DNA from: Singulisphaera sp. GP187
Lineage (GTDB): Bacteria > Planctomycetota > Planctomycetia > Gemmatales > Gemmataceae
Length of the DNA: 64,000 bases
Assembly (NCBI GenBank): GCA_945868575.1
Contig: CAMBMH010000001.1
Location: 1 to 64,000 of the forward strand
Direction: 5' to 3'
The notes beneath the pieces are model-generated. The model was not told the origin of the DNA. It did not search any database and worked only from the letters and a program-made list of their open reading frames with translations. Shown here piece by piece: positions 1,037 through 37,154 of the stretch; within the stretch, counting starts at the first letter, position 1, and each line of letters begins with the position of its first letter. The translations under genes were made by a program, and so were the position numbers.

Positions 1037-1543
1037 GTGGCAGAAAAACCAATTGTAGGCGTAATAATGGGTTCTCAAAGCGATTGGGAAACCATGTCGC
1101 ACGCAAGCGCCATTCTCGACGAGATGGGGGTCCCCCACGAAACCCGGATTGTTTCCGCGCACCGAACGCCCGATTTGCTGTTTGAATATGCTTCCACGGC
1201 AGAGAAGCGGGGAATCGAAGTGATTATCGCTGGGGCCGGAGGCGCGGCCCACCTTCCGGGAATGGCGGCCTCGAAAACGGTTCTCCCTGTCCTGGGTGTT
1301 CCCGTTGAGTCCCATGCGCTCAGGGGTGTGGATTCCCTTCATTCGATTGTTCAGATGCCGGCGGGTATCCCGGTCGGAACTTTGGCAATCGGCAAAGCAG
1401 GCGCGATAAACGCTGCCATTTTGGCAACATCCATTTTGGGGATCAAATTTCCCCACTTTCGGGAGGCCCTAAGGAGTTTTCGGGAAAATCAAACCAGAAA
1501 AGTCCTTGCCACAAGTGATCCAAGAAGTGGTTTAGCGGGATGA
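1037..1543 (+). CDS. purE: 5-(carboxyamino)imidazole ribonucleotide mutase
   Basis: 168 aa; [13 protein letters not shown]...VSAHRTPD...[12 protein letters not shown] signature of class I PurE. Confidence 0.96.
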
Positions 1544-2503
1544 CCCACCGGTCCGGATCACAGGCAATTGCCCTGCCCTTCCGGCACCCGGAGCGAAATA
1601 ACCCTGTTGTTGAATTTGCCCTGGCGCCGTTCCAAGACTTGGGCCTTGGGTAGGAATGTTGTTTTGCCCCGAATTTGTGTTGGGAGCCATGTTTGCATTA
1701 GGCACTGACCCAGAACCAGGTTTGGGGAACGGAAGAGCCTGAACCGGTGGGCTGCCCATTCGGCCCCCCTGAATTGGATTTCCCATTTGGGTACCCTGGC
1801 CGGGGACTTCAGGTCCAGAAGCAGGTCCCTGCTTTGGGAATGGAAGCGCCTCTACAGGTTGACCGGAGCGAATCTGGGGCCCGGTATCCTTTTGGCCTTG
1901 GCTATTGAAAATGTTGGTCTTCACCCGGTTGACCCCTTCCGATTTTGCCTCGGCTGAATCCGGATGGGTCATGGTGATCGGGCCGCTATCGGTGTAAAGC
2001 GGATAACCGTTTGCGGGCTGGTACTTGACCTTTAACTGAACCCGGTTGACTTCCTCGGAGCAAGTGCCCCAAGGGAGGAACAATGTATACCCGAAACCAA
2101 TAGGGTCGAGCTTGCCCAGGCGGGCAAGGGTCACTGCATCAATTTGCCACTGTTCCAGGTGGATAGGATCTGGCCCCTTGTTGCCGCTGACATCGTAGAG
2201 GTCAACCACCAGGGTTCCTTTGCCCTTTAGTGGCTTGCCGATTTCGCTTCCAAAGAGGTAAAGCCGTCCGCCTATTCCGGCGGCGCTCATTCCACCACGA
2301 GCGGGATCTGGCGTGAAGATGACTTCAGGCTGCCAGGTTGTCACAATCTGACAAGCCACTTCCCGATTGGGGTGAAGGATGGATTCCGTTGTTGGGAGAG
2401 TCACACAACCCGTTTCGGATAAGGCCCCAGCAACCATCAAAGCCCCGGTGACTCCTCGCCAAAATGCCCGATTGACACGACCAAAACCTGTGTGCTTTTT
2501 CAT
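1532..2503 (-). CDS. Putative lipoprotein with Pro/Gly-rich C-terminal half; last gene of the T2SS-like operon
   Basis: N-terminal hydrophobic segment followed by GALSETGC (lipobox-like); same strand and directly downstream of the secretin; repeated P-V-[EQ]-A-L-P-F-P-K motif in the C-terminus. Confidence 0.7.
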
Positions 2504-2574: not shown

Positions 2575-5500
2575 CTATTGACCCGGACGGCGGGTATCCG
2601 CCCCGGGGATATTCTGTTGGGGATAAACCTGTCTAGGTTCACCACCCATCTGTTGCACATTGGGGACCCCAAGGCTCGGACCATCCACCCCTGCTGGCCC
2701 TTGCTGGGCGGGATAACCAGCCTGGCGAACACCGATCGTGCCACGATTGGCATCGATCTGGGCGGGATTTACCACGCCCCTGGTTGGAATTAGCGCTCCG
2801 GGAACCGCGCCACCCCTGGAAATTTCTTCACCCATTGGCCGACTGGGAAGCGGGTCTGGGAGGGACCGGGGAGCGGGAAGGAATTCGTCACCGCTAAGAC
2901 GATGCCGGGGTGGAATTTCTTCACCAGTGGGACGGCGCCCCGATTCCGGTGTTCCGGTTCCAGCAGGCGGCGTAGTTGTAGGCGCACCATTTACTGCGGG
3001 GGGTGCGAACAGGTTGGGGAAGTGACGCTTCTTGGTGGGTTCGGTGGGGATGACTCCATCCACATCTCCCGGAGGGGGAAGGATCGGCTGCAAACCGGAT
3101 GGTCCATGTGTTTTGATCACATCACCAACCACCCAGCTCATTCGGGAGGCTTCCATCGCGAGAACCCTGTCCGCCTCAAGCCGATTGCGAACCACATGGG
3201 GGGTCAGGATAACGAGAAGTTCCTGACGGTCCTTATATTGTTCGCGGTAGCGAAAGGCTGTTCCAACAAGAGGTAGATCGCCCAACCAGGGGATCTTGCG
3301 CTCGGATTTCTCATCCTGTTTCTTGATGAGGCCACCGATGGCAACCGTCTCCCCGTCCTGGGCAATTACTGTGGTTTCCACAGTTTGGGTATCGATCTGG
3401 AAGAGATCGATCGGGGCGGTTCCCGCAGAACCGGTCAATTGTTGACCGCTGGGGCTAGCCTTGGACACCTGGGGAGCTACCCGCATGATTACTTTGCCGT
3501 CAGGCGAGATCTTGGGGGTCACCACCAACTCCACACCTACCGGGGTGTAGGAGATGCTTTGTTGGGTTACGCCCACGGTCGCGTTGCTTGCGCCGATCAG
3601 GGGGAAGTTGGAACCAACAAACACGCGTGCCTGTTGGTTATCCAGAGTGGTTACCTGGGGGCGACTGAGAATATCCACCCTGCCCTGGGTCTTAAGGGCC
3701 CGAATCAGCAGGTTGAAGGAGTCCGAAGCGGCCGAGAATACCAGGCCACCCGCCCCAAGTCTGTTGCTTGTCCGTCCAACATTAAGCGAGTTCACACCCT
3801 GGAAACCAACTACACCCGATTGGTAGCTGCTATAAGGATAAGGAGCGGCTCCAATAAAGTTGGTACCCGGAGTGACAAAGTTGCCTGTGGTCTGGTTAAC
3901 CGTGACCCCTGCGGGCAACACAGTTGAAGGCGAGGCTCCACTCAGGCCAACCGTACCAGCCGAGCCTATGGAGGGGAGAATACCCCGCTGGAAAAGAACC
4001 GGACTTTGAAGACCGATCTCCATACCGAATTCTTCGCCACCGGTCAGCCTTACCTCGGCAATCATCACCTGAATAACGACCTGGGGCTGTTCCGAGTCCA
4101 GCTCATTGATTAGCTTGGTGATTTCACCAAACCATCGGGGAGTTGCGGACACAATCAGCTTGTTGGTGATCGGTTCCGGGATAATCACCACCTGACGGTC
4201 AACCTGTTGGAAGTTGCTGAGCTGGCCGCTGCTTTCATACACCTGCAATGAGCTGGTGATGAAGTTATTCAGGGCGCTGGCAAGGTCAGCGGCGGTAGTA
4301 TTCCTGAGAAGGAAGATCTCGTTTCGCCTTTGCTGAATATCAAATTCATCAAGGCGGGCAATAATTGCCTCGATCGCGTCGAGGTCGTTGCGGCTACCAG
4401 CAACAATAATGCTGTTGGTGCGCTCATCAGGCGAAATGCGCAGGTCAATCAGCGGAGCACCCGGTTGGGCAGAGCCGCCAAGTGCGATCTGAAGCGCACG
4501 ACCTGTGCTGCCCGCGTTGTTCCCCTGGTTACCTACGGCCAATCCACCAAAGGCGGGGTTTGCCCCACCGGCTTGTCCAGCCCGGCCCGTGGCTCCACCG
4601 GTGGTGGCCCCACCCAGGAACAGGTTTTGAATGGTGGTGGCGAGTGTTGTGGCATCGGCCTTCTTGAGGGGGAAGATATTGATTTCTGCCCGGGCAATCG
4701 GCGGAACATCCAACTCCTTGAGGAGGGAGACGATCAGGTCGACAGACTTTTCCGGAGCAGAGATGATCAGCCGGTTGGTCCTGGCATCGGCGGTGATGTG
4801 AACATCTTCAAGCACACCTGCCTCAACGGGCTTTCCGTCCTTGTCTTTCCCGACAATACGAAGGGTCTGGGCCTTGGTACCAGTGCCACGAACCGCCTGA
4901 TTGTTGGTGGCACCCTGTTGGCCGCCGCCACCAAAGAAGCCGCCACCAAAGAAGCCGCCACCACCCTGTTGTTGGGTGTTTGTACCAGGAATTGCGATTC
5001 CCTGTTGGATGGCGGTATTGATCAGGGTCGAAAGCTCATCGGCCAAAGCGTACTTGAGGGGCACAACCCGCAATTCATTAACCGCTTTGGAAACATTGGT
5101 GTCCACTTTTTCGATCAGTGCCTTGATCTCTTCAAGGTCTGCGGCAGAAGCCTGAACGAATACCGTGTTGGAAGCATCATCCGAGGTGACACGGATCTGG
5201 TTTTGGGTGGTGGTTTCACCAGGGAACCGGTTGGAGTAAAAGTTGGTGATGAGGGTTGCGACCCGGGAAGCAGGCGCCTTTTTCAATTGGAAGGGCACCG
5301 CGCGGGACGCCTCGGCGTTGGGCCGATCCAATTTTTTAAGGTCGGCCAGGACTTCTTCCATGCGACCCTTTGGAGCCGCGATGAAAATCGCGTTCTGACG
5401 GGGCACAGGAATAAGGATAACACTGCCCGTTTGCTGTTGGCCTTGCTGGCCTTGTTGTTGGCCGGGCTGCCCACCACCGAACAGTGCGCCGAAGGGAAAA

Positions 5501-8500
5501 CCACCCTGGGGTTGTTGGGGCTGGCCAGGCTGTTGGCCGGGTTGAGCTTGTGGTTGGATGGCTCTTGTATTGCCAACGGCACTGATCACAACGGCCCGGT
5601 AAAGCTGCGAGAAGGTCGCCGCAATGCTGGTCGGGTCGCCGTATTCCATTGGAATCAGCTTGATTTGGAAATCGGAGGCGACTCCGGTCTTTTTGATGAA
5701 CTCGATGATTTGCATCACCGCTTCAATGTCGGCGGCGTTATTGCCACTTAGGATGAGGACCCCAAGTTGGCTGAGAGATTCAACCACGACAGCTTCTTTG
5801 GGACTGGGCAAATTATCCGCTTTGTTGGAAGCGCCGGGCTGAATGGCCACGGGTGGGCTTCCAGGAATGTTTTGCCAAGTTACCTTCTGAATACCCTGTT
5901 CCGCAATCACGCTAGCCGGAGTTGGATCGAGTCGGGGATCATAAATGGAGTTTTGGATAAAACCCAGGTTCCCTTGGTTGATTTCCGCCCTAAGGTCATC
6001 CGTGACCGCGTTGGCGAAAAAATCCGGGTTTCCTTGATCGTTTTGCCGGACCTGAGGTGTTGCAGGTTCATCAGAGCGTTGGGGAGGTGAACCACCGCCC
6101 ATACCGCCTCGGCCTCCGCCCATACCGCCTCGGCCTCCGCCCATGCCGCCGCCACCCATACCACCGCCACGGCCAAAGCCGCCGCCACCCATGCCACCAC
6201 GGCCAAAGCCGCCGCCACCCATACCACCCATACCACCCATGCCGCCGCCACCCATGCCACCACGGCCAAAACCACCGCCACCCATGCCACCAAAAGGCGA
6301 GCCACCACCACTCGGCAAGGCTGAGCCTCCTCCACCAAAACCGCTTGATGTAGGGCGGGAAGAAGTGCGTCCCTGGATGGCGTCAATTGCTTGTTGGACC
6401 AAAGCAGGATCAATCCCGGAAACAGGAACGACACGAACCACTTTGGCGTTCGGCTTGGCCGAGTTTTCCATGTACTCGACCAACTTAGAAATATCATCGT
6501 AAAGCGTTTGAGGACAATAAAGCATCAGACTGTTGCTTTTTTCATCAATTCCAATGCTAAGTGATACGCGCGCTGTCGCAGTTCCACCACCGCCGCCGCC
6601 ACCACCACCAAAAGGGAATCCAATTCCGGGGAATCCACCTGCGTTGGTGCTTGCCCCGGAGGATCGGGTCAAATCGCGATAAACATCCTGAATGGTTCGG
6701 GAAGCATCTGCGGCGAGGATATTTTCCAAAGGCCCAATGACCCAGGTTTTTGGTACTGCCTGGGAATCGCTTTCGCCCGAGTCCAATGCCTTTTCAAGGA
6801 GTTTTTTGATTGTGACAATGTCAAGTTTGCTGGCGCGGACCAATAGCGTATTGCTGGTAGCATCAGCCACCACACGAATCCGATTGGCGGCAGGACTGGT
6901 CGGGGCTCCTGCTCCAAGTCCGGCAAAGGGCAAAAGAGCCCCGATACCGCCAAAAAGCCCACCGCGTCCACCACCTGCGCCACCCTGCCCCTGGGCTGGT
7001 CCATTAAAAGCTTCCTCAAGGACCTTGGCTACCTGGGGAGCGCTTGCGGTCTTGAGGCGAATGATTTCAAAATCGCCTTCATTTGTAGGAGCAGTAGTCA
7101 ATACCCGGACAAGTTCCTGCGCAAGATTGAGTGTCTCCTCATCATCACAGGAAAGGAGCACTCTATTTCCCAAAACAGATATCTTCAAAGGCGCATCTTT
7201 GCGACCGGGCAGATCCCGAGCAAAAGTGCGTGGTGCAACCGGAGGTCGCCCCTGTTCTGCTCCAGGGGAACCAGGAAGAATATCAGGAGGTTGGCCTACC
7301 TGGAGCGGGATTTGGGCAGAGACCTGAGTCAGGCCGTTTCCGTAAGGAAGCGAAGCTTCGGGCTGGTCGTTGCCGGTTGGTTTCTTGGGTTGCGTCTGGG
7401 GAATTCGTTGAATAGGTGCAGGAATATTGCCCGGAATTGTCGATGGCGTAGCCGTTGGGTTTACCACACGAACCGGATTGGCCCGCATTTGGGGCATCAT
7501 CCGTTCCAGGGATTCCGCCAGATCGGACGCGCTGCCTTTATCGATATTCAGGATGCGAAGGTTGCTGGTTCCGCCCATCGAGCTGGAACCATTGAGGGCC
7601 TTGATAATCTGTTCAACTTCGAGCACCTGGTCGGCCGGACCACGAACAATGATCGCATTTCGTTCAACAGATGCTTCAAGATAAGGAGCGCCACTCTTGG
7701 CATCGCCCAACATTCCCTTGAGGGTTTCAACCACCGTGGTGGGATTTAGTGCGCCTACCGCAAGGAGGGTGGTTCGAACACCCTTCTCCGTGCCGGAACC
7801 AAGTATCTGGCGGGCGATTTCCAACTGGTCATCCGGGGTCGCATAAACAATCACAGTGTTTGGATTGGCGGCGCTGATTCGGACAACCGGACTTGCCTTG
7901 TAAATTTCGGTGAGGGTCCGGGCCAAAGCATCGGCGGTTCCCGAGGGAACGGTGTATTGCTTGAGCAAAGGATTGCCTGGCAGGAATGGTTGCTGCCCGG
8001 GGGTGCCAACATCGATCCGTTTGAGCACATCGCGAGCCTGGGCGACCTTGTCCGCAGGACCGGTCACAAGAACGGTGTTTGTGCGGTCGTCGGTGGTGAT
8101 GCTGTGGGACCTGGAACGCCCGGTGGTAGCGGTGACCCGCCCCGTTCGGGGATCCATTACGGGCTGGCCACCCGCGGTTTGGGGAGTCAATTTGGGATCA
8201 CCCAAGAGGTCCTTGAGAATGCGTTCCGCATCACGGGCTTTGATGTATTTGCATTCGTAGGTGAGGCTTTCCGCCTGGACCTGATTTTCGTTCTGTTCAA
8301 TATCTTTGATGGTTTTGCGAATACGCTTGAGGTTGGCAACTGTGTCCTGCAGGATCAATTGGTTCGCCCGGGTCATGGGAACCACTTCACCAAAAGGCCC
8401 CATCATTTTCTTAATTTCAGGGGCGACATCCTCGGCCACCAGAGTGGTAAGCGGGAGGACAATCGACACCATTTCGGTGTTTCCCCGCTGGTCCAATTCC

Positions 8501-9120
8501 TCCATTGCAATGCGAGGCAACAGCGTGGGATCGATCTTTTCGTCGGCGGGAACCAGGGTGAATGATCGCTCACGACGGATGAGATAGAATTTTTGCGTCT
8601 CGCTATTGGCAAGAAGCGCCTCATTGATGATGTCAATCACCTCGGGAACGGTGTAAAGCTTCCCGGCAGGTCCCTGGAAGGTGAATGTTCCGGATGGTTT
8701 ATAGGTGGTGATAACGGGGAGGTCGGTCTGGTTGGTCAACCACTCGAAAACCCCGGCCCAAGGCTTGCTGTCAAAAGAAAAGGCTACCTTTTTTCCGCCA
8801 AAAGGCGCAGGAGAAGCAGCGGGAGGAGTCATACCCGATCCCGCAACGGACCCAAGCGGCCCAAGCGGCATTGGCGTCAGCCTGGGCTGAGGGAGTCCAC
8901 CGGGGGTGGCTCCTTGAATCGGAAGGGGTGTGGCTTGGAAAAACGCGGGTGCCTCCGCTGGAGCGGCAACAGGCTGGGCTACCCCAGAAACCGGCGGGAG
9001 ATTGGGAATCTGAGCCAAAGCCACAGGACCAAAATAGGCCAGCGCCCACGCTGCAACCCATGCCCTTTTGTTACCAAATACCCGATTGAACGGGCGACCC
9101 ATAGAATTTTGAAGGCTCAT
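2575..9120 (-). CDS. gspD: Giant type II/IV-type secretin (GspD/PilQ family) with about 13 N1-like modules
   Basis: Start chosen at MSLQNSMGRPFNR (ORF extends to 9153) with a signal peptide. C-terminal secretin signature VIAQDGETVAIGGLIKKQ...IPWLGDLPLVGTAFRYREQYKDRQELLVILTPHVV. Many repeats of the form (V)xxLKxAxAxxLAxxLxxxF...I..D.xTNTLIVxAxxxDLxxIxxLIxxLD. Confidence 0.95.
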   Translation of the reverse strand: MSLQNSMGRPFNRVFGNKRAWVAAWALAYFGPVALAQIPNLPPVSGVAQPVAAPAEAPAFFQATPLPIQGATPGGLPQPRLTPMPLGPLGSVAGSGMTPPAASPAPFGGKKVAFSFDSKPWAGVFEWLTNQTDLPVITTYKPSGTFTFQGPAGKLYTVPEVIDIINEALLANSETQKFYLIRRERSFTLVPADEKIDPTLLPRIAMEELDQRGNTEMVSIVLPLTTLVAEDVAPEIKKMMGPFGEVVPMTRANQLILQDTVANLKRIRKTIKDIEQNENQVQAESLTYECKYIKARDAERILKDLLGDPKLTPQTAGGQPVMDPRTGRVTATTGRSRSHSITTDDRTNTVLVTGPADKVAQARDVLKRIDVGTPGQQPFLPGNPLLKQYTVPSGTADALARTLTEIYKASPVVRISAANPNTVIVYATPDDQLEIARQILGSGTEKGVRTTLLAVGALNPTTVVETLKGMLGDAKSGAPYLEASVERNAIIVRGPADQVLEVEQIIKALNGSSSMGGTSNLRILNIDKGSASDLAESLERMMPQMRANPVRVVNPTATPSTIPGNIPAPIQRIPQTQPKKPTGNDQPEASLPYGNGLTQVSAQIPLQVGQPPDILPGSPGAEQGRPPVAPRTFARDLPGRKDAPLKISVLGNRVLLSCDDEETLNLAQELVRVLTTAPTNEGDFEIIRLKTASAPQVAKVLEEAFNGPAQGQGGAGGGRGGLFGGIGALLPFAGLGAGAPTSPAANRIRVVADATSNTLLVRASKLDIVTIKKLLEKALDSGESDSQAVPKTWVIGPLENILAADASRTIQDVYRDLTRSSGASTNAGGFPGIGFPFGGGGGGGGGTATARVSLSIGIDEKSNSLMLYCPQTLYDDISKLVEYMENSAKPNAKVVRVVPVSGIDPALVQQAIDAIQGRTSSRPTSSGFGGGGSALPSGGGSPFGGMGGGGFGRGGMGGGGMGGMGGMGGGGFGRGGMGGGGFGRGGGMGGGGMGGGRGGMGGGRGGMGGGSPPQRSDEPATPQVRQNDQGNPDFFANAVTDDLRAEINQGNLGFIQNSIYDPRLDPTPASVIAEQGIQKVTWQNIPGSPPVAIQPGASNKADNLPSPKEAVVVESLSQLGVLILSGNNAADIEAVMQIIEFIKKTGVASDFQIKLIPMEYGDPTSIAATFSQLYRAVVISAVGNTRAIQPQAQPGQQPGQPQQPQGGFPFGALFGGGQPGQQQGQQGQQQTGSVILIPVPRQNAIFIAAPKGRMEEVLADLKKLDRPNAEASRAVPFQLKKAPASRVATLITNFYSNRFPGETTTQNQIRVTSDDASNTVFVQASAADLEEIKALIEKVDTNVSKAVNELRVVPLKYALADELSTLINTAIQQGIAIPGTNTQQQGGGGFFGGGFFGGGGQQGATNNQAVRGTGTKAQTLRIVGKDKDGKPVEAGVLEDVHITADARTNRLIISAPEKSVDLIVSLLKELDVPPIARAEINIFPLKKADATTLATTIQNLFLGGATTGGATGRAGQAGGANPAFGGLAVGNQGNNAGSTGRALQIALGGSAQPGAPLIDLRISPDERTNSIIVAGSRNDLDAIEAIIARLDEFDIQQRRNEIFLLRNTTAADLASALNNFITSSLQVYESSGQLSNFQQVDRQVVIIPEPITNKLIVSATPRWFGEITKLINELDSEQPQVVIQVMIAEVRLTGGEEFGMEIGLQSPVLFQRGILPSIGSAGTVGLSGASPSTVLPAGVTVNQTTGNFVTPGTNFIGAAPYPYSSYQSGVVGFQGVNSLNVGRTSNRLGAGGLVFSAASDSFNLLIRALKTQGRVDILSRPQVTTLDNQQARVFVGSNFPLIGASNATVGVTQQSISYTPVGVELVVTPKISPDGKVIMRVAPQVSKASPSGQQLTGSAGTAPIDLFQIDTQTVETTVIAQDGETVAIGGLIKKQDEKSERKIPWLGDLPLVGTAFRYREQYKDRQELLVILTPHVVRNRLEADRVLAMEASRMSWVVGDVIKTHGPSGLQPILPPPGDVDGVIPTEPTKKRHFPNLFAPPAVNGAPTTTPPAGTGTPESGRRPTGEEIPPRHRLSGDEFLPAPRSLPDPLPSRPMGEEISRGGAVPGALIPTRGVVNPAQIDANRGTIGVRQAGYPAQQGPAGVDGPSLGVPNVQQMGGEPRQVYPQQNIPGADTRRPGQ
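6080..6345 (-). repeat. Imperfect ~30-bp tandem repeats encoding a Gly/Met/Arg/Phe-rich segment (GGMGGGGFGRGGMGGGG...) within the secretin
   Basis: Repeated ccgccgccacccatgccaccacggccaaag units visible on the + strand. Confidence 0.85.
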
Positions 9121-9316
9121 GGAAGAACCCTGACTTTCTGACGCCGCCCTCATTTAGCATGGATGTCAAGGACATAACATCAACGCAAAGAGGGTCCGGC
9201 AAGTTCATGCTACCCCTGCAATGGTTAAGATCGGCAGAGTTTGCCCAAATTCTTTTGCGAAAATACCGGTCGTTCCCAAAAAAAAGATTTTAACAATTAG
9301 GCAAGATAGGTAAGGA

Positions 9317-10549
9317 CTAGTTCCCGGTTGGCTTTCGCCCCTCTTTCTTTTGATCTCCCTTGCTTGATCCATCCTTTTTGGTTGGAGTTTCCGGTTTGGC
9401 AGGAACCAATTTTTCCAAACCAAGCAGTTTTAGCGCATCCAAATCCAGGGGAGTGTTCACTACCGGGAAAAAGGTTTCCCCACAACGCATCAGATACAAC
9501 TCTCCATCCGTTTGAAAAACAATATATGACGGATCTATATGAAGCAACTTGGCCTTCAACACAAGATTGTCATACTTATCTTTTATCGAAAAATCACTCC
9601 AGGCAGCTGAGGTCCTCAACTTCGTTTCCCGTCCCCCTCGATTCTGGTCATAAACATACGCTTCCCAACGGCGACCATCTCCGGAAATTGTCGTTAGTTT
9701 CACACCCGAGAGGACCTCTTCACGATCTTCTTCCGGGCCTCGAACCACCGCTGGGGGTGGTGCAGGAGGTTCCGGGGGTGCGGGAGGCGGATCGGGCTGA
9801 AAGAAGGGATTGGCCGAGGCCAGGATGGTGTAGTCCCTTTTTTGGGCCGCAAGAACCTTTTGGGGAGTTACCGAAGACTTGGCATCCGCAGAAAGTTTTT
9901 CAGGGACTAAGCGATTATTTTTCTCAGCACCGGGAACCATCAAACCCTCAACCGTTAAGACCATTTTCAGGTCCGATTTGCTTTGGGACTTCTTCAGGTT
10001 TTCAACCTTCAGGGTTGGAACATGATGCAACAGGGGAACCCGGTGAAGCATCTCCAAAAAATTCCCAAGGTCTTCGAGTTTTCCCTGCGTGCTGATTTCA
10101 AATGCAACAGGCTTGTAGGCGTCTTTCCGGCCTTCCTTGGTTTCAAGTTTGGGAATCGCCTGATTGGTAAAGCTCCTTCCAATCGTAACGATCGTGTTGC
10201 CAGGCTTGAAACCACTTGCGTTTAACAGGTCCCGAAGCAAGGTTGAATAATCGAGCCTCAGGGATGCCAAATGTGCGTTTTGGGCATCCGCATCGGGTTT
10301 TTGGGCAACCGGCAAACTCAGCTTTTTCCAATCCTTGAGACGAGGGTGCTTCTCGAGAACCTTTGTGATTTTGCCGCCTTCGTTTTCAACCTCTTCCTCG
10401 AGACGCCCTACCTCTGTTTCAAGGGTGTCGATTTGCGCGCGCATATCCGACCATGGGGAATAAAACCCATAATAGAAGCCGCCTCCACCCACACCAAACA
10501 CCATGATCGCGCCAAGGATCCAGGCTAGAGTTTTTTCTCTGGGTGTCAT
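9317..10549 (-). CDS. GspM/PilO-like inner-membrane assembly protein with extra C-terminal domain (possible GspC/PilP-like fusion)
   Basis: Short cytoplasmic N-terminus, one TM (LAWILGAIMVFGVGGGGFYYGFY), coiled coil, PilO-like segment, Pro-rich linker, then a small beta-rich domain; between gspL-like and gspD. Confidence 0.7.
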   Translation of the reverse strand: MTPREKTLAWILGAIMVFGVGGGGFYYGFYSPWSDMRAQIDTLETEVGRLEEEVENEGGKITKVLEKHPRLKDWKKLSLPVAQKPDADAQNAHLASLRLDYSTLLRDLLNASGFKPGNTIVTIGRSFTNQAIPKLETKEGRKDAYKPVAFEISTQGKLEDLGNFLEMLHRVPLLHHVPTLKVENLKKSQSKSDLKMVLTVEGLMVPGAEKNNRLVPEKLSADAKSSVTPQKVLAAQKRDYTILASANPFFQPDPPPAPPEPPAPPPAVVRGPEEDREEVLSGVKLTTISGDGRRWEAYVYDQNRGGRETKLRTSAAWSDFSIKDKYDNLVLKAKLLHIDPSYIVFQTDGELYLMRCGETFFPVVNTPLDLDALKLLGLEKLVPAKPETPTKKDGSSKGDQKKEGRKPTGN

Positions 10550-12165
10550 GACTTGCCCTCCTTGCCGCCAATACCTTCCCTGGTGTTGGACTTTTTATCT
10601 AAATTATCTTTGTTTTCTTTGGGCGACGCTTTTTCCTGAGCAGATGCGTCCCCAGCGCCAGATGCTTCACCAGGCTCAAGATCCATGGGACCTTTTGTTG
10701 CACCGGAAGTTTTCAACTCGGGCTTTGCGGCGGGAACCAACTTTCGGTTGTAATCGTTCGGTGGCCGCCTTTTCACATCGATTTCCAAGGTAAAGTCGGA
10801 GCCTTTTTGCTCCTCCTTTTCGATTTTGTAAACCCCGTCCTTGCGCAATTCATCCAGTAGCGACTTCAGGGCTTCACGCTTTTCGGGTCCGCCGGGAAGA
10901 GTTCCCTTGATCGTGAGGTGACTTCGAAAATCGGTTTCTTTCTCAGGATTGCGCCTTGGTGAAGCACTGATTTCAGTCAGTTGCAGATCCTTTGTGTTGG
11001 GGATCCGATGGGATATGTCATAGATCTCGTCCAACCAAACCACATCGTCCCAAGCTCCAAGGGCTTGATACCTTTTCGCAGTAACTTTGGAATCTTCAAA
11101 TTCCTTTTTCAGACTATCGCGACGCCTTGTAAGTGTATCCAGTTCGTCCATGGTCCGGCTTTTTACGCCCCAAAGGAACCACCCAGCCACTACAAACGCA
11201 ATGAAACCAACAAAAGCATAAATTGCGACCCGCTGCTGCTCCATTTGGGAGGGCGGAGGAGGTTGTTTGGGATTAAGGAAATCGGGCCTGTTTTTATGCC
11301 CCTTTTCCTCCACCCGGGCCAAACCAGACAAAACTCCCAAAGCGGCAACATAATCGCTACTGTTGATTGGCAAGCTTGGAGCATCCAAAACTCCATCAAA
11401 AGGAAGAATCCTTTGGAGGGGGAGTTTTGTGGCCGAGGCCAAGTCAGCGTCCTGATCCCATTTTGGTGGAGCCAACAGGAAAAGGGATTTGGGCGCGGTT
11501 TCCGGGTTCTGTGACCCATAAAGAGACAGGCTTCGCCGAATTTCCTGGACCAAACCGGTGGCGGGGTTTAATGAGCGGCTGAAAAGGGGTTTACCATTAA
11601 GGAGGACCACCAATTCCGACCACGCTCCACCAACAGCGACCACGGCCACAGGCTCATCCACTGGGCCAAGGTCCGACATCAGGCCAACGAGACCAGACAA
11701 TCTGGGACTAAGGCCCCCCAGTTTCAGTTGGGAACCGGTCGCTATGGTTTTCCAAGTGTTGAATAGCTCGATCCGCAAAAGGAGAGCCAGAACCCGGCGA
11801 TCGGCCGCTCCAGGCAAATCCGCGGTTTCATAATCCAGCTTGACTTCATCCGGAGATTCATTGAGATCACGCATCACCTGGAAGCGGACCATTCCCGGCT
11901 CTTCTGCCGGTCCCACACGGGGGATGGCCAATTGGCGTGCAATGAGTCTGTCGCGCGGCAAGGAAACAACAAGTCGGGCACCCGCAACGGCGAAATCTTT
12001 TAGAAAAGCCTTGAGCTGTTCGGCCTGCTCCTCGGCCATCACCGGATTCGGACTGCCTTCGGTTTCAATGGTAAGTACCTTGCAACCCGCAAGGCCTTTC
12101 CGGGCGGTCAAGCCCAGAACGCTTAAGCGACCATTATCCCAATCGATGTATACCTTACGGATCAT
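10546..12165 (-). CDS. GspL-like protein (PilM-like actin fold fused to PilN-like segment)
   Basis: 539 aa; N-terminal PilM/GspL-like domain, TM helix IYAFVGFIAFVVAGWFLWGV, coiled coil, periplasmic domain; operon position. Confidence 0.75.
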   Translation of the reverse strand: MIRKVYIDWDNGRLSVLGLTARKGLAGCKVLTIETEGSPNPVMAEEQAEQLKAFLKDFAVAGARLVVSLPRDRLIARQLAIPRVGPAEEPGMVRFQVMRDLNESPDEVKLDYETADLPGAADRRVLALLLRIELFNTWKTIATGSQLKLGGLSPRLSGLVGLMSDLGPVDEPVAVVAVGGAWSELVVLLNGKPLFSRSLNPATGLVQEIRRSLSLYGSQNPETAPKSLFLLAPPKWDQDADLASATKLPLQRILPFDGVLDAPSLPINSSDYVAALGVLSGLARVEEKGHKNRPDFLNPKQPPPPSQMEQQRVAIYAFVGFIAFVVAGWFLWGVKSRTMDELDTLTRRRDSLKKEFEDSKVTAKRYQALGAWDDVVWLDEIYDISHRIPNTKDLQLTEISASPRRNPEKETDFRSHLTIKGTLPGGPEKREALKSLLDELRKDGVYKIEKEEQKGSDFTLEIDVKRRPPNDYNRKLVPAAKPELKTSGATKGPMDLEPGEASGAGDASAQEKASPKENKDNLDKKSNTREGIGGKEGKS

Positions 12166-12262: not shown

Positions 12263-13798
12263 TTACAGGCCAGCCAATTTCGCCGGGTCGGCCCCCGCAT
12301 CCCTAGCTTGGCGTGCCTTTTCCGAAAGGTCGCGGAAGTATACCACACGGGGGCGAGGACCGCTGATATCCACTACAACTTCCATCAGTCCCATTGGTCC
12401 GCCCTGATCGAGTTTACCCATTATCCGGACACGATAAGCCGTGGACCGCCCGGTAACATACCGTTCGAGTGATCGAATTTTGTTCGGATCAAGCTTGGCC
12501 TCGGTGAAAAGCCACGTCGGACTCTGATAGAGCGGGTCATCAGAAACCATCGAGGAAGGCCTTGTCCCCACAATGTTTTGCAGGTCCGACTCCTGAAGGG
12601 ATGGGAGTCCAGCCAGCAAAACAGGGTCAGCCGTAAGCAGGTTGAGTTTGCCAGGCAAATCGACATCCTGACTGGTGGTGTAACCCTGATAAAGCGAGGG
12701 GAGATATTGCTTTGCCAACATGGGATCCTTGAGCGGACTCGGAAATGTCACGGTTTTTTGGGTTTTCCCCGAGCCCACGCTGATATCCACATTTTTGGAT
12801 ACCAAATCCATAATATTTGTGATCTTGTTCAGTTTGGCCATCCCTGTGGAAGCCTGCTGCATTTTGTTGCTGATTTCAGTGGAGACCAGAGTGTAATCAT
12901 TGGAATTCATTCCTGATACACCACCACTGGATCCCTTTCCCGAAGCAAGGTTGGCAAGGACAGTGACTGTGCTAACAGGCTGCTTGGACGCGCCATACAA
13001 CCTGTAAGCCATCACAAAATTACTAACTTGCTCCCCTGCAACCGTATTGAGTTCCTGCTGGAGCGTAGGAAGATCAGCAGAATTCAGGTTTACCTTGGCG
13101 TTCCAGGCGTTGGTAGAGGCGTTTGAAGGTGGAACCAGATTCTGTTCCCGGCTGTAAACGGTAAAATACTTCGACAAGCCGGGATTGGAGGAATCCCCAA
13201 AGAGTACCTCGGGGGTAACACCTTTGACCAGAAGCAATTCATCAATCGTATCGAGTGGACCATTTTTGCAATAATAAGGAGGCTGCAAGGTGTTGTAGTA
13301 TTCACTTTCCGCACCGGCATCACCTATCGTGTCATCGTTGTCCACCCAATCGACCACCGCATCGATGATCGCATCGCCAAGGACCGGGATCTGGGGCTGC
13401 AAACGCTTGAGGGTGTCTTTCAGGGTCTTTCCAGTTGGATCAACCTGCAACAGGGCGTTGATGTTCCATTTCGAGGACTCATCGTCTACAGTAAGGATCT
13501 CAAAAGTGGCCGACTGGGAGCCATTGACCAGGGAAATCGACTGGACCGTTCCCGCCTGGGGAATATTCCCCTGGGCAAGTTCCGACAATACAAACGCAAC
13601 ACCCGAATCCGCGATTGAGCGTGCCTGGGCTAGCCGAACGGCGGAGTCAGTTGCCCGGTATTCCGCCATCATGTTGTCATTAAATCGATAAGCCGCAAGT
13701 GAAAGAAACGCAACAACCATCAACACCGCAAGCAACACCACACCCCGGCGGGTTTCGCCGGAGGTTGGCAGTCGATTTGGTGTCAATCTGAGTTTCAT
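12263..13798 (-). CDS. gspK: Type II secretion minor pseudopilin GspK
   Basis: N-terminal RRGVVLLAVLMVVAFLSLAAYRF...; large GspK-type protein located next to gspJ. Confidence 0.85.
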   Translation of the reverse strand: MKLRLTPNRLPTSGETRRGVVLLAVLMVVAFLSLAAYRFNDNMMAEYRATDSAVRLAQARSIADSGVAFVLSELAQGNIPQAGTVQSISLVNGSQSATFEILTVDDESSKWNINALLQVDPTGKTLKDTLKRLQPQIPVLGDAIIDAVVDWVDNDDTIGDAGAESEYYNTLQPPYYCKNGPLDTIDELLLVKGVTPEVLFGDSSNPGLSKYFTVYSREQNLVPPSNASTNAWNAKVNLNSADLPTLQQELNTVAGEQVSNFVMAYRLYGASKQPVSTVTVLANLASGKGSSGGVSGMNSNDYTLVSTEISNKMQQASTGMAKLNKITNIMDLVSKNVDISVGSGKTQKTVTFPSPLKDPMLAKQYLPSLYQGYTTSQDVDLPGKLNLLTADPVLLAGLPSLQESDLQNIVGTRPSSMVSDDPLYQSPTWLFTEAKLDPNKIRSLERYVTGRSTAYRVRIMGKLDQGGPMGLMEVVVDISGPRPRVVYFRDLSEKARQARDAGADPAKLAGL

Positions 13799-13810: not shown

Positions 13811-15112
13811 CTATTTGGATTTTCCGGAGGAGCCGCCGTTTGATTTCGACGACCCTGAAGGTATGGTTGCGCCACTTCCCGAACCACCGCCGGTAGATTT
13901 TGAGCCACCCCCACTTGTCCCGGAGGATTTGGATCCCGAGGAATTGGATCCGCTTGGAGTAGATTTCGAACCAGCCCCTGAACTCGAACCTCCCGAGGAG
14001 CTTGAACCCGATGATGATGAGGATCCGGAGGAGGAAGAGGAGGAAGATGAAGTCCCACTATCGGGGGAGTTTGCACCAGGGTCCACAACCTTGCCAAGCG
14101 CAATGGAATTAGCCGTCGGAAGCGCCACAATTTGTGAATAACGACGAATGGTTTTGCCGTCAGCTCCCTCCATCTCCACTTCAATTTTCACAGCCCTTGG
14201 AGGACCCTGAGGCGTGGAACTGTCATAGCTGAGAGATCGGCTATCCCAGAAATCCGTCCAGTATCCTGGCGTGCCGTCGTTGTAGCTAAAAGTGATCGAG
14301 CGCACCTCGGGTGCAATAATGAGGTTTTCAACATCTGCGGGAAGGCTGGATGTGTTGACACTATCAGGCGATGAGACCTGGCTTGATTCCCAACGGGCGA
14401 GCCCCTGTCCCTCCCCGGGAACCCAATAAGTTACCCGCTTTACATCACAAGCAGGCCCCTCGAAATCGGTTGGAGATTGTGATCCCGAACCGGTACTCGA
14501 AGTTGCTCCGCTAGGGGCTCGAAGAGTTCCTGCCTGGAAGGCAGTCAACTGATCCTGATAACCCACCACTCCAGGAATAAAAAGTACCCTTACCTGGGCT
14601 TGTGTGCTAGTGGTTGAAGAGGATGAAGAAGAGGATGAACCGGTGCTACCCGAAGAGGAGGAGCCGCTTGAACTTCCGGATTTGGATGCGCTGCCCGAGG
14701 AGGAACCGCTTGTGGAGGAACCGCTTCCAAGGCCTGTACCACTCCCCGAACTTGACGATGAACCGGTGGAGCCTGATGCTGTTCCACTTGAGTCACCCGT
14801 TGTGGAGGACGAGGAGCTACTGTCCTCCGTGGGGTAATACAAATCACCCGTGCGAAAGGGACCGGGATTGTTAATGGTAATGGCGCCTACCATGTCCCGG
14901 GCGATCCGGTCCATTAGGGCCCGGGCCAAGGTTGCCTGCGCAATGGCATCGCGACTATTTTGGGTGGTAAAGACCTGGAGCTCAACAACCACATAAAGTC
15001 CACCCAAAAGAAGCAAACTAATGGCGCTCGCCAACAGGGCCTCAAGAAGGGTGAAACCCTTGCGACCCCTTTTACGGTTTGGGACGGTTTGAAAATGGAC
15101 TCTATTTTCCAT
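13811..15112 (-). CDS. gspJ: Minor pseudopilin GspJ with Ser/Gly-rich internal insert and tail
   Basis: Start at MENRVHFQTV; prepilin motif KGFTLLEALLASAIS; long Ser/Gly/Thr tracts. The longer ORF to 15292 overlaps gspI and is unlikely. Confidence 0.85.
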   Translation of the reverse strand: MENRVHFQTVPNRKRGRKGFTLLEALLASAISLLLLGGLYVVVELQVFTTQNSRDAIAQATLARALMDRIARDMVGAITINNPGPFRTGDLYYPTEDSSSSSSTTGDSSGTASGSTGSSSSSGSGTGLGSGSSTSGSSSGSASKSGSSSGSSSSGSTGSSSSSSSSTTSTQAQVRVLFIPGVVGYQDQLTAFQAGTLRAPSGATSSTGSGSQSPTDFEGPACDVKRVTYWVPGEGQGLARWESSQVSSPDSVNTSSLPADVENLIIAPEVRSITFSYNDGTPGYWTDFWDSRSLSYDSSTPQGPPRAVKIEVEMEGADGKTIRRYSQIVALPTANSIALGKVVDPGANSPDSGTSSSSSSSSGSSSSSGSSSSGGSSSGAGSKSTPSGSNSSGSKSSGTSGGGSKSTGGGSGSGATIPSGSSKSNGGSSGKSK

Positions 15113-15134
15113 GACACTCACTCCTTTGCAAGTA

Positions 15135-15656
15135 TCACTTGGTTGTTGAACCGGAGGAGGATCCACCAGAAGAGGTGGATCCTGAACTACTTGATCCTGT
15201 GGTGCCCGAACTGGTTGAGCCGTCTGCCAATTCTTCAGGAATAGCATCCATGGTGCTGCCCAATGCTTGGGGATCAACAAGATATTGGACAAGATTTACC
15301 TTGGACCGTAGCGCCCCATCCCTTTGGGCTGTGGCGGTGACCTGAAAGAGGCTTGTGCCAACGGACTGCACATCGACCGACCAAGTATACCGATCATCCG
15401 TATCCCAAATTCCGCTGCTGCTCGAAAGGCCCACCACCCCTGCCTTCATTTCAGCGATTTTGGATTCGGCAACAAGGAGTGAAACGCTCCGCTGTTCGGC
15501 CTCTTCAGCACGCTCACGAGCCATGTCGACCAAGCTGGTAATGGCGACAATCGACATAAAAAATATGGCAAGAGAGATAAGCACCTCAAGAAGGGTCATT
15601 CCCTTTCGGTTTTTTCTTTTGCGATCCATTCGAGAAAGGCGATTGATTTTGATCAT
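15135..15656 (-). CDS. gspI: Minor pseudopilin GspI with Ser/Gly-rich C-terminal tail
   Basis: KGMTLLEVLISLAIFFMSIVAITSL prepilin motif; gene order H-I-J. Confidence 0.82.
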   Translation of the reverse strand: MIKINRLSRMDRKRKNRKGMTLLEVLISLAIFFMSIVAITSLVDMARERAEEAEQRSVSLLVAESKIAEMKAGVVGLSSSSGIWDTDDRYTWSVDVQSVGTSLFQVTATAQRDGALRSKVNLVQYLVDPQALGSTMDAIPEELADGSTSSGTTGSSSSGSTSSGGSSSGSTTK

Positions 15657-15657
15657 T

Positions 15658-16200
15658 TTAGCGCTCCACCGAGGAGGTCCCGGTCAAAGCCCGCAAATGA
15701 ATAACAGCGGGGCGCACTCCTAATCCTTCACAAAGGATGGTGACATCGAAATCGGCACGGCCATCAGGATAGAAAACCGCAACCTTCTGCCAGGAAGTGG
15801 GGTTCACCTCACCGATTTCCATCGCGGTTTGACGACTTCCAAAAGATACGATTTCGCCCGCCGAAACACCATTATCGATACTAAGGGCAACACCCTGGGG
15901 AAGCGCATCTTCGTGCTCTTCATCCTCATCCGATGCCCCACCATTCCAGGCATCATCCCGGTCCGGGGCGGCCTTCAGGTTGCCGCCTCCATCAACAATA
16001 GAAAGCCGGTAAGGTTCGCCCTCTTCTATGGCCAAATGGCGTGCCATCGAGATTGCAGCCCGAACCGTGTCCGAGGCAGATTTCATGGTCTCGCCACGAA
16101 ACCAACCGGTCATTGTGGGGTAAGCCATTGCGGCCAGCATGACAATCACAGCCAGGACAAGCACCATTTCCAGGAGCGTAAATCCACTTCTGCGTTTCAT
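15658..16200 (-). CDS. gspH: Minor pseudopilin GspH
   Basis: MKRRSGFTLLEMVLVLAVIVMLAAMAYPTM; GspH-like C-terminus (VAVFYPDGRADF...VIHLRALTG). Confidence 0.85.
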   Translation of the reverse strand: MKRRSGFTLLEMVLVLAVIVMLAAMAYPTMTGWFRGETMKSASDTVRAAISMARHLAIEEGEPYRLSIVDGGGNLKAAPDRDDAWNGGASDEDEEHEDALPQGVALSIDNGVSAGEIVSFGSRQTAMEIGEVNPTSWQKVAVFYPDGRADFDVTILCEGLGVRPAVIHLRALTGTSSVER

Positions 16201-16245
16201 GTCAACTCCCTCCGACCAAGTCAGCCACATCAATCCTTCAATGGA

Positions 16246-16662
16246 TTATTTCGGGGCTTCACCAAGAGGCTTGCCATTCTTGGTTGTCCAAACATAGCAA
16301 GTGGTATTGGTTTCACTATCCAGGGATTGAAATTGAAACTGCTGGCCCCAGGGATCAACAAGGGTTTCCTGCTTTTCGAGGTAGGTCGGGACCAATTCCT
16401 GGAGATTGCCAGGCCAGTTTCCTGTGTTCGTTTTAAAGGCCATCGCTGCCGACTTGATGGTTTTTGCGTTGATAGCAGCGGCCTTCTCTTTGGACTGCTC
16501 GAGCTGATTGAGTAGGGAAACGGTTCCAAGGCCTGCCAAAACAACAATGATCGCAACCACAACCAGGATTTCCATCAAGGTAAAAGCTCGGCGGGAAATA
16601 CGGCCAAGGTTACCAAGGGGACGATTAAGGGTGGTGTTTTGCAACGGAGCAAGCATTTTCAA
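16246..16662 (-). CDS. gspG: Major pseudopilin GspG
   Basis: RRAFTLMEILVVVAIIVVLAGLG...LQELVPTYLEKQETLVDPWGQQFQF, typical GspG. Confidence 0.92.
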   Translation of the reverse strand: MKMLAPLQNTTLNRPLGNLGRISRRAFTLMEILVVVAIIVVLAGLGTVSLLNQLEQSKEKAAAINAKTIKSAAMAFKTNTGNWPGNLQELVPTYLEKQETLVDPWGQQFQFQSLDSETNTTCYVWTTKNGKPLGEAPK

Positions 16663-16737: not shown

Positions 16738-17943
16738 TCAATCAATGGCACTCGACATCTTGAACACGGGGAGCAAAAGTCCGGCTACAACCCCCAAAGT
16801 CAAACCCGCCATCACCAAAAGCATCATTGGTTCAAGGAGCCTGACAAAAAGGTCCAGCTCACGGGTGGTTCGTTTTTCCAGGCCGTTTGCAATGTCCAAA
16901 AGGACTTTTTCGAGGTTGTTGCTCTCTTCACCCACAGAAACCATTTCCACCAAATCCCTTGGAAAATATTTGCTGTTGGCGAGTGGGGTGGTAAGGCTAT
17001 CACCCGATTTGATATTTTCCGCACTCTTTTCAATAGCTTCGGCTATTACCTTGTTGCCCGTTGAATCTTTAGCAATCCTCAAGGACTGAAGGATCGGGAT
17101 TCCGTTTTTCAGTAGGGTTCCAAGAATTCGGGCAAACCTTGCGATGGACAAACTCAAAAAGATGCGCCCCATACCCGGAACGCTGATCTTGAAAAGATCC
17201 ACCGAGCGACGACCGGCCTCTGTCGCGGCCCATGAGGAAAACCAGTACCAAAGTCCAAACGCCGCCAACAGAAGCAAAACACCATAATATTGGAGGCCAT
17301 GGCTAAGACCGATCAGCGCCTCGGTGATCATCGGGAGTTGCCCCTTCTCTCGAAGCCGGACAAAGATCTGCTCGAACTGGGGGACAAAGAAAATGATCAG
17401 GATATTGAGAATGATGAAACCAATGATCCCCAAAAATACAGGGTAAGCCATGGCCCCGCTGACCTTGGACCTTAGCTCCTCCTGATGTTCAGTGAAATCG
17501 GCGATACGCCTTAGCACATCCTCCAAAAAGCCACCCTCCTGGCCGGCCAACACCATGCTGATTGCCAATTCACCAAAAACTTTCGGATGCTGCCCCATAG
17601 CCTGGGCCAATCCTGTACCATCCGCGACCTTTGCGCGAATCTCCTTGATAACGGCAGAAAATCCTGCGTTGGAGGCCTGTCGTTCCAAAATTTCAAGTGA
17701 CCTGAGAAGGGGCACGCCCGATTGGAGCAGATCCGCCAACTGGGAAAAGAATCCGGCAAGGATTCGGCTGGAAACGCGTTTGCCGCCCGCGGCCTTGGCG
17801 GCGTTTTGCATTGCCTCCAGCTTGATTGGCATCAGCCCTTTGGAATCCAACATCGAGACAGCTTCACGCTCGCTGTTGGCGGTAAGAACACCTTTGCTCT
17901 TAACCCCAGTAGAGGCCATTGCGATATAATTGTAATCCGGCAT
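16738..17943 (-). CDS. gspF: Type II secretion inner membrane protein GspF
   Basis: 401 aa; two GspF/PilC-type repeats (FFSQLADLLQSGVPLLRSLEIL; FARILGTLLKNGIPILQSLRIA). Confidence 0.95.
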   Translation of the reverse strand: MPDYNYIAMASTGVKSKGVLTANSEREAVSMLDSKGLMPIKLEAMQNAAKAAGGKRVSSRILAGFFSQLADLLQSGVPLLRSLEILERQASNAGFSAVIKEIRAKVADGTGLAQAMGQHPKVFGELAISMVLAGQEGGFLEDVLRRIADFTEHQEELRSKVSGAMAYPVFLGIIGFIILNILIIFFVPQFEQIFVRLREKGQLPMITEALIGLSHGLQYYGVLLLLAAFGLWYWFSSWAATEAGRRSVDLFKISVPGMGRIFLSLSIARFARILGTLLKNGIPILQSLRIAKDSTGNKVIAEAIEKSAENIKSGDSLTTPLANSKYFPRDLVEMVSVGEESNNLEKVLLDIANGLEKRTTRELDLFVRLLEPMMLLVMAGLTLGVVAGLLLPVFKMSSAID

Positions 17944-19677: not shown

Positions 19678-19806
19678 GACCACTCCGGGGATAAACAACG
19701 GCCGCAACAGACCCCACCATCTGTTAACTTGACCCGCAAATTGGTTGGACCTGAGGAAGGTAAGTCTAATTCTGGCCGGTAATAGGTGAATTAATTATGA
19801 GAACAG

Positions 19807-37039: not shown

Positions 37040-37154
37040 CGTTCTTTGATCCTGAAGATTCTTTGGTTCCAAAGGAAATTCTACAGAACCCAAAGGGAAA
37101 TACCTTTGGAGGACGCATGTTCATATGTACACTATACACAAGAAAGGGGTTTCC

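What the first reader, a model, noticed from the sequence alone, without database searches (positions are those of the whole stretch)
2575..9120. Giant secretin with about 13 N1-type modules instead of the usual three or so
Seen: one uninterrupted ~2180-aa ORF with a signal peptide, an N0/STN-like domain (KVAFSFDSKPWAGVFEWLTNQ...), then about 13 repeats of the secretin N-module pattern (e.g. LTYECKYIKARDAERILKDLL...DRTNTVLVTGPADKVAQARDVLKRID; AVPFQLKKAPASRVATLITNFY...DDASNTVFVQASAADLEEIKALIEKVD), and one canonical secretin domain (~3190-4090). Established: classical GspD/PilQ secretins have N0 plus roughly one to three N1-type modules stacked as rings in the periplasm. Inference: this secretin may form an exceptionally long periplasmic channel, possibly matched to the enlarged or invaginated periplasm of Planctomycetota. 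My module count is by eye.
Basis: partly seen in the sequence, partly recalled or inferred. Interest (0 to 1): 0.82.

Follow-up and report, generated by a model that had tools for sequence, protein, structure and literature searches.

The report
Giant many-ringed secretin of planctomycetes
This gene encodes the outer-membrane pore of a bacterial protein-secretion machine with about 13 ring-forming domains instead of the usual three, and its relatives in neighbouring groups have 6 up to about 50, so the machine's length may be written into the gene as a count of rings.

Summary
On the minus strand (2575-9153; 2192 aa, or 2181 aa from the ATG at 9120) lies one open frame with a signal peptide, an N0 domain, 13 N1-type modules and one secretin domain. 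Pfam and a home-made HMM find 10-11 modules. AlphaFold shows beta-alpha-beta-beta-alpha in each of m1-m9, including the two that sequence alone misses. It passes NCBIfam's GspD cut-off and ends a type II secretion operon (E-F-G-H-I-J-K-L-M-D). The gene is conserved (86% over the secretin region) in a second genome of the genus and its modules are under purifying selection, so it is not a misassembly.

Thirteen is a mid-range value. Orthologues have 6-9 modules in other Planctomycetia, 11-13 in Gemmatales, about 30 in one family, 43-47 in some Verrucomicrobiota and 50-52 in many Phycisphaerales. Counts are nearly fixed within clades, modules are colinear, linkers are a constant ~7 residues. All form one clade apart from proteobacterial GspD (3 modules). 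I found no published description.

Best reading: a stacked-ring channel whose ring number sets its length, roughly 45-50 nm here and over 130 nm in the longest. Ring stacking, length and the match to periplasm width are inferred, not shown.

The parts
2575..9153 (-). giant GspD secretin, 2192 aa (2181 aa if started at the ATG at 9120)
   Evidence: NCBIfam TIGR02517 458.9 bits against cut-off 351.35
9010..9120 (-). signal-peptide-like N terminus (residues 12-48, ...AWVAAWALAYFGPVALAQ)
   Evidence: read by eye from the translation; not run through a predictor
8539..8793 (-). N0 domain (residues 121-205)
   Evidence: AlphaFold E-H-E-E-H-E-E; residues 173-341 match XcpQ N0N1N2 4e9j E=1.5e-5; Foldseek 5mp2 E=6.5e-10
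8287..8469 (-). N1-type module m1 (229-289)
   Evidence: HMM 4.8e-9; EHEEH
8005..8271 (-). module m2 (295-383)
   Evidence: HMM 1e-10; EHEEH
7792..7968 (-). module m3 (396-454)
   Evidence: HMM 3.3e-8; EHEEH
7588..7776 (-). module m4 (460-522)
   Evidence: HMM 1.5e-9; EHEEH
7090..7566 (-). module m5 (530-688), 98-residue insert
   Evidence: first half only by HMM (0.008); fold EHE-EEH by AlphaFold; core 95% identical in G195
6778..7077 (-). module m6 (693-792), Gly/FG-rich insert
   Evidence: HMM 2.8e-14; EHEEH
6457..6747 (-). module m7 (803-899), Gly/FG-rich insert
   Evidence: HMM 2.8e-8; E-HH-EEH
5683..6444 (-). module m8 (904-1157) with a 190-residue Gly/Met/FG-rich insert (residues 930-1119)
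   Evidence: not significant by HMM; EHEEH by AlphaFold at moderate confidence; core 87% identical in G195
5323..5670 (-). module m9 (1162-1277), Gln/Gly/FG-rich insert
   Evidence: HMM 1.8e-8; EHEEH
5095..5307 (-). module m10 (1283-1353)
   Evidence: HMM 1.1e-18; Pfam
4699..5079 (-). module m11 (1359-1485), Gly/FG-rich insert
   Evidence: HMM 9.5e-15; Pfam
4345..4689 (-). module m12 (1489-1603), Gly-rich insert
   Evidence: HMM 1.1e-19; Pfam
4081..4326 (-). module m13 (1610-1691), next to the secretin domain (N3 position)
   Evidence: HMM 1.6e-15; Pfam
3169..4080 (-). secretin (outer-membrane pore) domain, residues 1692-1995
   Evidence: PF00263; PulD 6hcg E=2.3e-40
1532..2503 (-). downstream protein with a lipoprotein-like N terminus (...LSETGC); a homologue sits beside the secretin gene in nearly all relatives
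   Evidence: no Pfam/NCBIfam hit
9317..10549 (-). GspM/PilO-fold inner-membrane protein with a C-terminal all-beta domain (possible GspC HR/PilP-like, unproven)
   Evidence: Foldseek PilO 2rjz 7.7e-5, 5uvr TMt 0.66
10546..12165 (-). GspL/PilM-like
   Evidence: TIGR01175 E=1.2e-4, below cut-off
12263..13798 (-). GspK
   Evidence: T2SSK_1st 2.5e-18
13811..15292 (-). GspJ-position pseudopilin (true start probably ~75 codons inside the listed ORF)
   Evidence: N_methyl at residues 75-100
15135..15656 (-). GspI
   Evidence: TIGR01707 1.5e-10
15658..16233 (-). GspH
   Evidence: XpsH/GspH models
16246..16662 (-). GspG major pseudopilin
   Evidence: PF08334 5.4e-6
16738..17943 (-). GspF
   Evidence: TIGR02120 3e-105
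17977..19707 (-). GspE ATPase
   Evidence: TIGR02533 629.8 bits, cut-off 630.25

Best explanation
This is the GspD secretin of the organism's type II secretion system, lengthened by serial addition of N1-type ring modules. SHOWN: N0 + 13 N1-type modules + one secretin domain, at the end of a T2SS operon, in a PVC-restricted clade whose members have 6 to about 52 modules, with clade-specific, colinear, selectively maintained counts. INFERRED: about 15 subunits assemble so that each module makes one ring, as in PulD and Thermus PilQ. The stacked rings form a periplasmic tube running from the outer-membrane pore towards the cytoplasmic membrane, where the PilO/GspM-type proteins of the same operon meet the N0 ring, so ring number sets how far the channel reaches. 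From PulD (20 nm with 3 N1-type rings) and an assumed 2.5-3 nm per extra ring, this one would be about 45-50 nm long and the 50-module forms about 135-160 nm. The alpha1-beta2 inserts of m6-m9, m11 and m12, disordered and Gly/FG-rich in Gemmatales, may narrow or filter the lumen, like the Gly-containing N1 loops of Gate 2 in Thermus PilQ.
For: TIGR02517 GspD 458.9 bits against 351.35. Complete T2SS gene order around it, kept in all Gemmatales loci that cover it. N0 and m1-m9 folds; Foldseek top hits XcpQ N0N1N2 (6.5e-10) and PulD (9e-10). Linkers between modules median 7 residues in all the very long forms, IQR about 6-8, against 4 and 6 in proteobacterial GspD: same packing geometry. P0001 modules share only ~33% with each other, but 11 of 11 are reciprocal best hits in order with another genus; 50-module Phycisphaerales match 43 of 50 in register at mean 49% identity. 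After adding modules missed at ~85-residue gaps, counts are 50 in eight Phycisphaerales genomes, 52 in two, 43 in four Verrucomicrobiota. One clade, SH-aLRT 98, apart from proteobacterial GspD and from short secretins of the same phylum. Thermus PilQ: six rings span most of a wide periplasm, and glycine-containing N1 loops form Gate 2 (PMC5745081). Planctomycetes: greatly enlarged periplasm, and crateriform structures joining the two membranes (PMC5394234).
Against: No oligomer was modelled; the AlphaFold model says nothing reliable about module-module arrangement (pTM 0.31, mean pLDDT 58). A ~50 to 160 nm tube needs an equally long pseudopilus or another way to push substrates, for which there is no evidence. 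Counts are not perfectly fixed: within Gemmatales the detected number varies between 10 and 13. No GspC was identified and the proposed HR-like domain is unproven. No periplasm width is known for this uncultured organism.
Confidence: 0.7

Rival explanations
1. It is the T2SS secretin, but only the last three or so modules (m11-m13) form rings; the others are a flexible string of domains that hangs in the periplasm and captures substrates, binds peptidoglycan or ties the pore to the cytoplasmic membrane.
For: m5 and m8 are degenerate by sequence and carry long disordered inserts; predicted relative placement of modules is uncertain (pTM 0.31). Rings N0/N1 of known secretins are often flexible (PMC6882859).
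Against: Linkers are short and constant (median 7), module number is conserved over deep divergence, and N1-type modules are ring-building folds in solved secretins. A mere tether would not need exact numbers.
Confidence: 0.2
2. The channel serves mainly as the exit of a pilus-like fibre, and is part of the crateriform structures with their ~12 nm fibres, rather than protein secretion.
For: Only one secretin domain was found in this ~90% complete genome, which also carries several PilB/PilT-type ATPase genes on other contigs. Crateriform structures link outer and cytoplasmic membrane and bear fibres in P. limnophila (PMC5394234).
Against: Scores GspD over cut-off but PilQ under cut-off (252 against 284) and SctC under cut-off; operon has the GspG-K pseudopilin set and GspF. 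Related genomes have additional short secretins, so PilQ may lie in the missing part here.
Confidence: 0.15
3. Module number grows and shrinks neutrally, as in many tandem-repeat proteins, and has no functional meaning.
For: Counts vary several-fold between orders; one Verrucomicrobiota lineage has a local gain of about 4-5 modules.
Against: Modules within a protein are old (about a third identical) yet each is kept in place across genera; counts 50, 52, 43 and 30 recur in independent species; module cores dN/dS about 0.02-0.09 against G195.
Confidence: 0.05

Closest known systems
GspD/PulD/XcpQ, the type II secretion secretin (Pseudomonadota)
   Same: N0, N1-type modules, C-terminal secretin domain, T2SS operon, TIGR02517 over cut-off; similar inter-module linkers (4-6 against 7)
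   Different: 13 N1-type modules instead of 3; Gly/FG-rich inserts; in 150 Pseudomonadota genomes the listed GspD-model matches had open frames of at most 1185 aa, and 488-1072 aa for those over cut-off on their own
Thermus thermophilus PilQ (N0-N5)
   Same: More rings than usual, explained by its authors as spanning a wide periplasm; glycine-containing N1 loops form a second gate (PMC5745081)
   Different: Five N1-type domains, a type IV pilus secretin of 757 aa; not a T2SS component
Planctopirus limnophila locus Plim_0410-Plim_0401 (PMC10632474)
   Same: A ~10-gene operon whose first four genes are annotated type II secretion and whose last six are Planctomycetes-specific proteins of unknown function; probably the same kind of operon
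   Different: The paper does not mention a giant secretin or module number; correspondence with this operon was not checked here
FG nucleoporins
   Same: Disordered FG/GLFG-containing, Gly/Gln-rich segments that would sit at a channel
   Different: Only 12 FG in the inserts against 6.2 expected from composition (p=0.007); no homology; location in the lumen is not shown

Membership tests
Type II secretion secretin GspD | Passes the curated GspD model (TIGR02517, cut-off 351.35 bits) | tested here: met
   458.9 bits
Type II secretion secretin GspD | C-terminal secretin domain (PF00263) | tested here: met
   156.5 bits, cut-off 27.5
Type II secretion secretin GspD | N0 domain followed by N1-type ring-building modules | tested here: met
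Type II secretion secretin GspD | Encoded with GspE, GspF and pseudopilins G-K | tested here: met
   GspE misses its model's cut-off by 0.5 bit, and GspF, H and I also fall under theirs
Type II secretion secretin GspD | GspC partner with HR domain binding N0 | tested here: inconclusive
   No T2SSC Pfam hit; C-terminal beta domain of the PilO-like protein gives only PilP at E=1.1
Type II secretion secretin GspD | Forms an outer-membrane oligomeric channel that exports folded proteins | not testable with these tools
   needs experiment
Type IV pilus secretin PilQ | Passes TIGR02515 (cut-off 284.35 bits) | tested here: not met
   252.1 bits
Type III secretion secretin SctC | Passes TIGR02516 (cut-off 238.45 bits) | tested here: not met
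   179.3 bits

The most novel reading that the evidence does not exclude
PVC bacteria encode the length of their secretion channel as the number of stacked secretin rings, from about 6 to about 52, making a molecular ruler that spans envelopes up to about 150 nm and may be part of the membrane-joining crateriform structures. In Gemmatales the channel is also packed with disordered FG/Gly loops that act as a permeability mesh.
Probability: 0.3. Interest if true: 0.93.

Novelty: new variant of a known kind. Interest (0 to 1): 0.8.

Why it matters
Solved secretins have one to five N1-type rings. A family with 6 to about 52, with counts kept constant inside clades, would be the most extreme periplasmic channel known by sequence and a natural series for testing whether ring number is a ruler for envelope width. 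It bears on an old puzzle: how planctomycetes, with their greatly enlarged periplasm, move macromolecules across it and what their membrane-joining crateriform structures are made of.

Tried and rejected
Misassembly or a split gene: rejected (same length and gene order in G195 and other genera; long forms also occur in single-contig genomes such as G097 and G272). Spurious module counting: rejected (0 hits in 95 shuffles; 3 in proteobacterial controls). PilQ or SctC identity: under their cut-offs. Strict GspC HR homology of the PilO-like protein: weak sequence signal (Pizza designs dominate the hits; PilP at E=1.1), and Foldseek matched only its PilO half; left open. FG-nucleoporin parallel: enrichment is modest, so kept only as a speculation. 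A first tree lost all long proteins to a length filter and was redone. A Verrucomicrobiota survey found the giant form in only one of 116 genomes, so it is not general there. Literature searches found no account of giant secretins; subscription papers are not covered.
Full report
Observation. The window's ORF at 2575-9153 is on the minus strand and encodes 2192 aa; the finder's upper limit 9120 is an in-frame ATG 11 codons in, just before a signal-peptide-like stretch. Pfam finds Secretin_N in 10 significant stretches (E=5.6e-98 for the whole protein) and one Secretin domain (6.4e-46). In the whole genome every Secretin_N match falls in this ORF. I built a 64-position module HMM from 13 hand-cut modules and iterated it over relatives. 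It finds 11 significant modules in the protein, with m5 half-detected and m8 not significant. Because the seed came from this protein, three checks follow: 0 hits in 95 shuffled proteins, exactly 3 in two proteobacterial GspD proteins as expected for N1-N3, and independent structure prediction.

Structure. AlphaFold2 of residues 115-1290, with 7 homologues aligned, has low global confidence (mean pLDDT 58, pTM 0.31) because nearly half of the residues are disordered inserts, but the modules are mostly at 70-90. Mapped back, N0 is E-H-E-E-H-E-E and each of m1-m9 has the E-H-E-E-H core of the ring-building motif, m5 and m8 included; m5 and m7 have one extra element. Foldseek against the PDB gives XcpQ N0-N1-N2 (6.5e-10) and PulD (9e-10) first. 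By sequence, residues 173-341 match XcpQ N0N1N2 at 1.5e-5 and the C terminus matches PulD at 2.3e-40. So the count of 13 stands: 11 by sequence, 2 by fold.

What it is. The protein passes NCBIfam's GspD equivalog model (458.9 against 351.35) and fails the PilQ and SctC cut-offs. Upstream on the same strand lie GspE, F, G, H, I, a GspJ-position pseudopilin, GspK, a PilM/GspL-like protein and a PilO-fold GspM-like protein; downstream lies a protein with a lipoprotein-like start. Several of these, GspE, F, H and I among them, fall under their models' strict cut-offs, GspE by half a bit. This order is kept in other Gemmatales, and parts of it in other Planctomycetia, Phycisphaerales and Verrucomicrobiota. 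The own genome shows a single secretin domain, but it is about 90% complete.

Relatives. A survey of the class found orthologues in nearly all genomes. Named relatives place the window in Gemmatales. Module counts: 6-9 in Pirellulales, Planctomycetales and relatives, 10-13 detected in Gemmatales, about 30 in family f71, 43-47 in some Verrucomicrobiota; in Phycisphaerae they range from about 15 in one complete gene to 50-52 in many Phycisphaerales. The longest open frames reach 5073 aa. On the secretin-domain tree all 94 multi-module sequences form one group (SH-aLRT 98) apart from proteobacterial GspD and from short secretins of the same phylum (a quick tree without bootstrap). In 150 Pseudomonadota genomes no listed GspD-model match had an open frame above 1185 aa. 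In 116 Verrucomicrobiota only one had the giant form, and the verrucomicrobial sequences sit near Phycisphaerae on the tree, so transfer is likely.

Why the number looks functional. Modules inside this protein resemble each other at only about 33%, yet 11 of 11 aligned modules are reciprocal best hits in order with a different genus. Two 50-module Phycisphaerales proteins match 43 of 50 modules in register at a mean of 49%. After allowing for modules missed at ~85-residue gaps, eight Phycisphaerales genomes have 50 and two have 52, four Verrucomicrobiota have 43 and one 47. Linkers between modules have a median of 7 residues with a very narrow spread in the long forms, close to the 4 and 6 of proteobacterial GspD. 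Against the same-genus orthologue, dN/dS is about 0.08 overall and about 0.02-0.09 in the module cores where it can be computed; dS is near saturation, so these are rough.

Mechanism. In solved secretins each N1-type module forms one ring of the periplasmic tube. PulD, with three, is 20 nm long (PMC6882859). Thermus PilQ, with five plus N0, is described as one of the largest and as spanning most of a wide periplasm; glycine-containing N1 loops form its second gate (PMC5745081). Planctomycetes have a greatly enlarged periplasm with crateriform structures joining both membranes (PMC5394234). The simplest explanation is a longer tube with one ring per module. My length figures assume 2.5-3 nm per ring and are estimates. 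The Gly/FG-rich inserts all fall between alpha1 and beta2 of their modules and are a Gemmatales trait (12-14% Gly and 0.6-1.1 FG per 100 aa in the N region, against at most about 6% and 0.2 elsewhere). FG enrichment over composition is modest (12 against 6.2), so a nucleoporin-like mesh is only a speculation.

Literature. Ten full-text searches found no account of secretins with this many modules. A transposon study of P. limnophila shows a probable counterpart operon (Plim_0410-0401), with six genes called Planctomycetes-specific and of unknown function (PMC10632474); I did not verify the correspondence.

Verdict. Observation confirmed, interpretation partly supported, new variant of a known kind, with the wider series of 6 to about 52 modules being the more surprising result.

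Noticed in passing
window 1532-2503: Small protein with a lipoprotein-like start, no known family, directly downstream of the giant secretin; homologues sit beside the secretin gene in nearly all relatives, including Phycisphaerae and Verrucomicrobiota. Possible pilotin-like partner.
   Followed up: partly
window 9317-10549: PilO/GspM-fold protein with an extra C-terminal all-beta domain; in some relatives an Ig-like domain is inserted between the two. It could be a GspM-GspC fusion.
   Followed up: partly
window 5797-6366 and other alpha1-beta2 inserts: Disordered Gly/FG-rich inserts are a Gemmatales trait, absent from the 30- to 52-module forms.
   Followed up: partly
L083 (G247): Here the orthologous gene is broken into three ORFs with secretin modules (1738-1873, 771 and 595 aa), by mutation or assembly error.
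   Followed up: no
L159: A record titled Cyanobacteria bacterium CYA carries a Phycisphaerales-type giant secretin, very close to a planctomycete sequence (L164) on the tree; probably a mislabelled genome.
   Followed up: no
L136, L138, L142-L144, L150, L155: Several Verrucomicrobiota MAGs carry 43-47-module secretins although only 1 of 116 surveyed genomes of the phylum does; likely horizontal transfer.
   Followed up: partly
G000 contigs C22, C159, C196, C151: Further PilB/PilT-type ATPase genes, but no second secretin domain was found in this draft genome.
   Followed up: no
window 35879-37093: A deoxyhypusine synthase family protein (PF01916, E=2.3e-69) in a bacterium.
   Followed up: no
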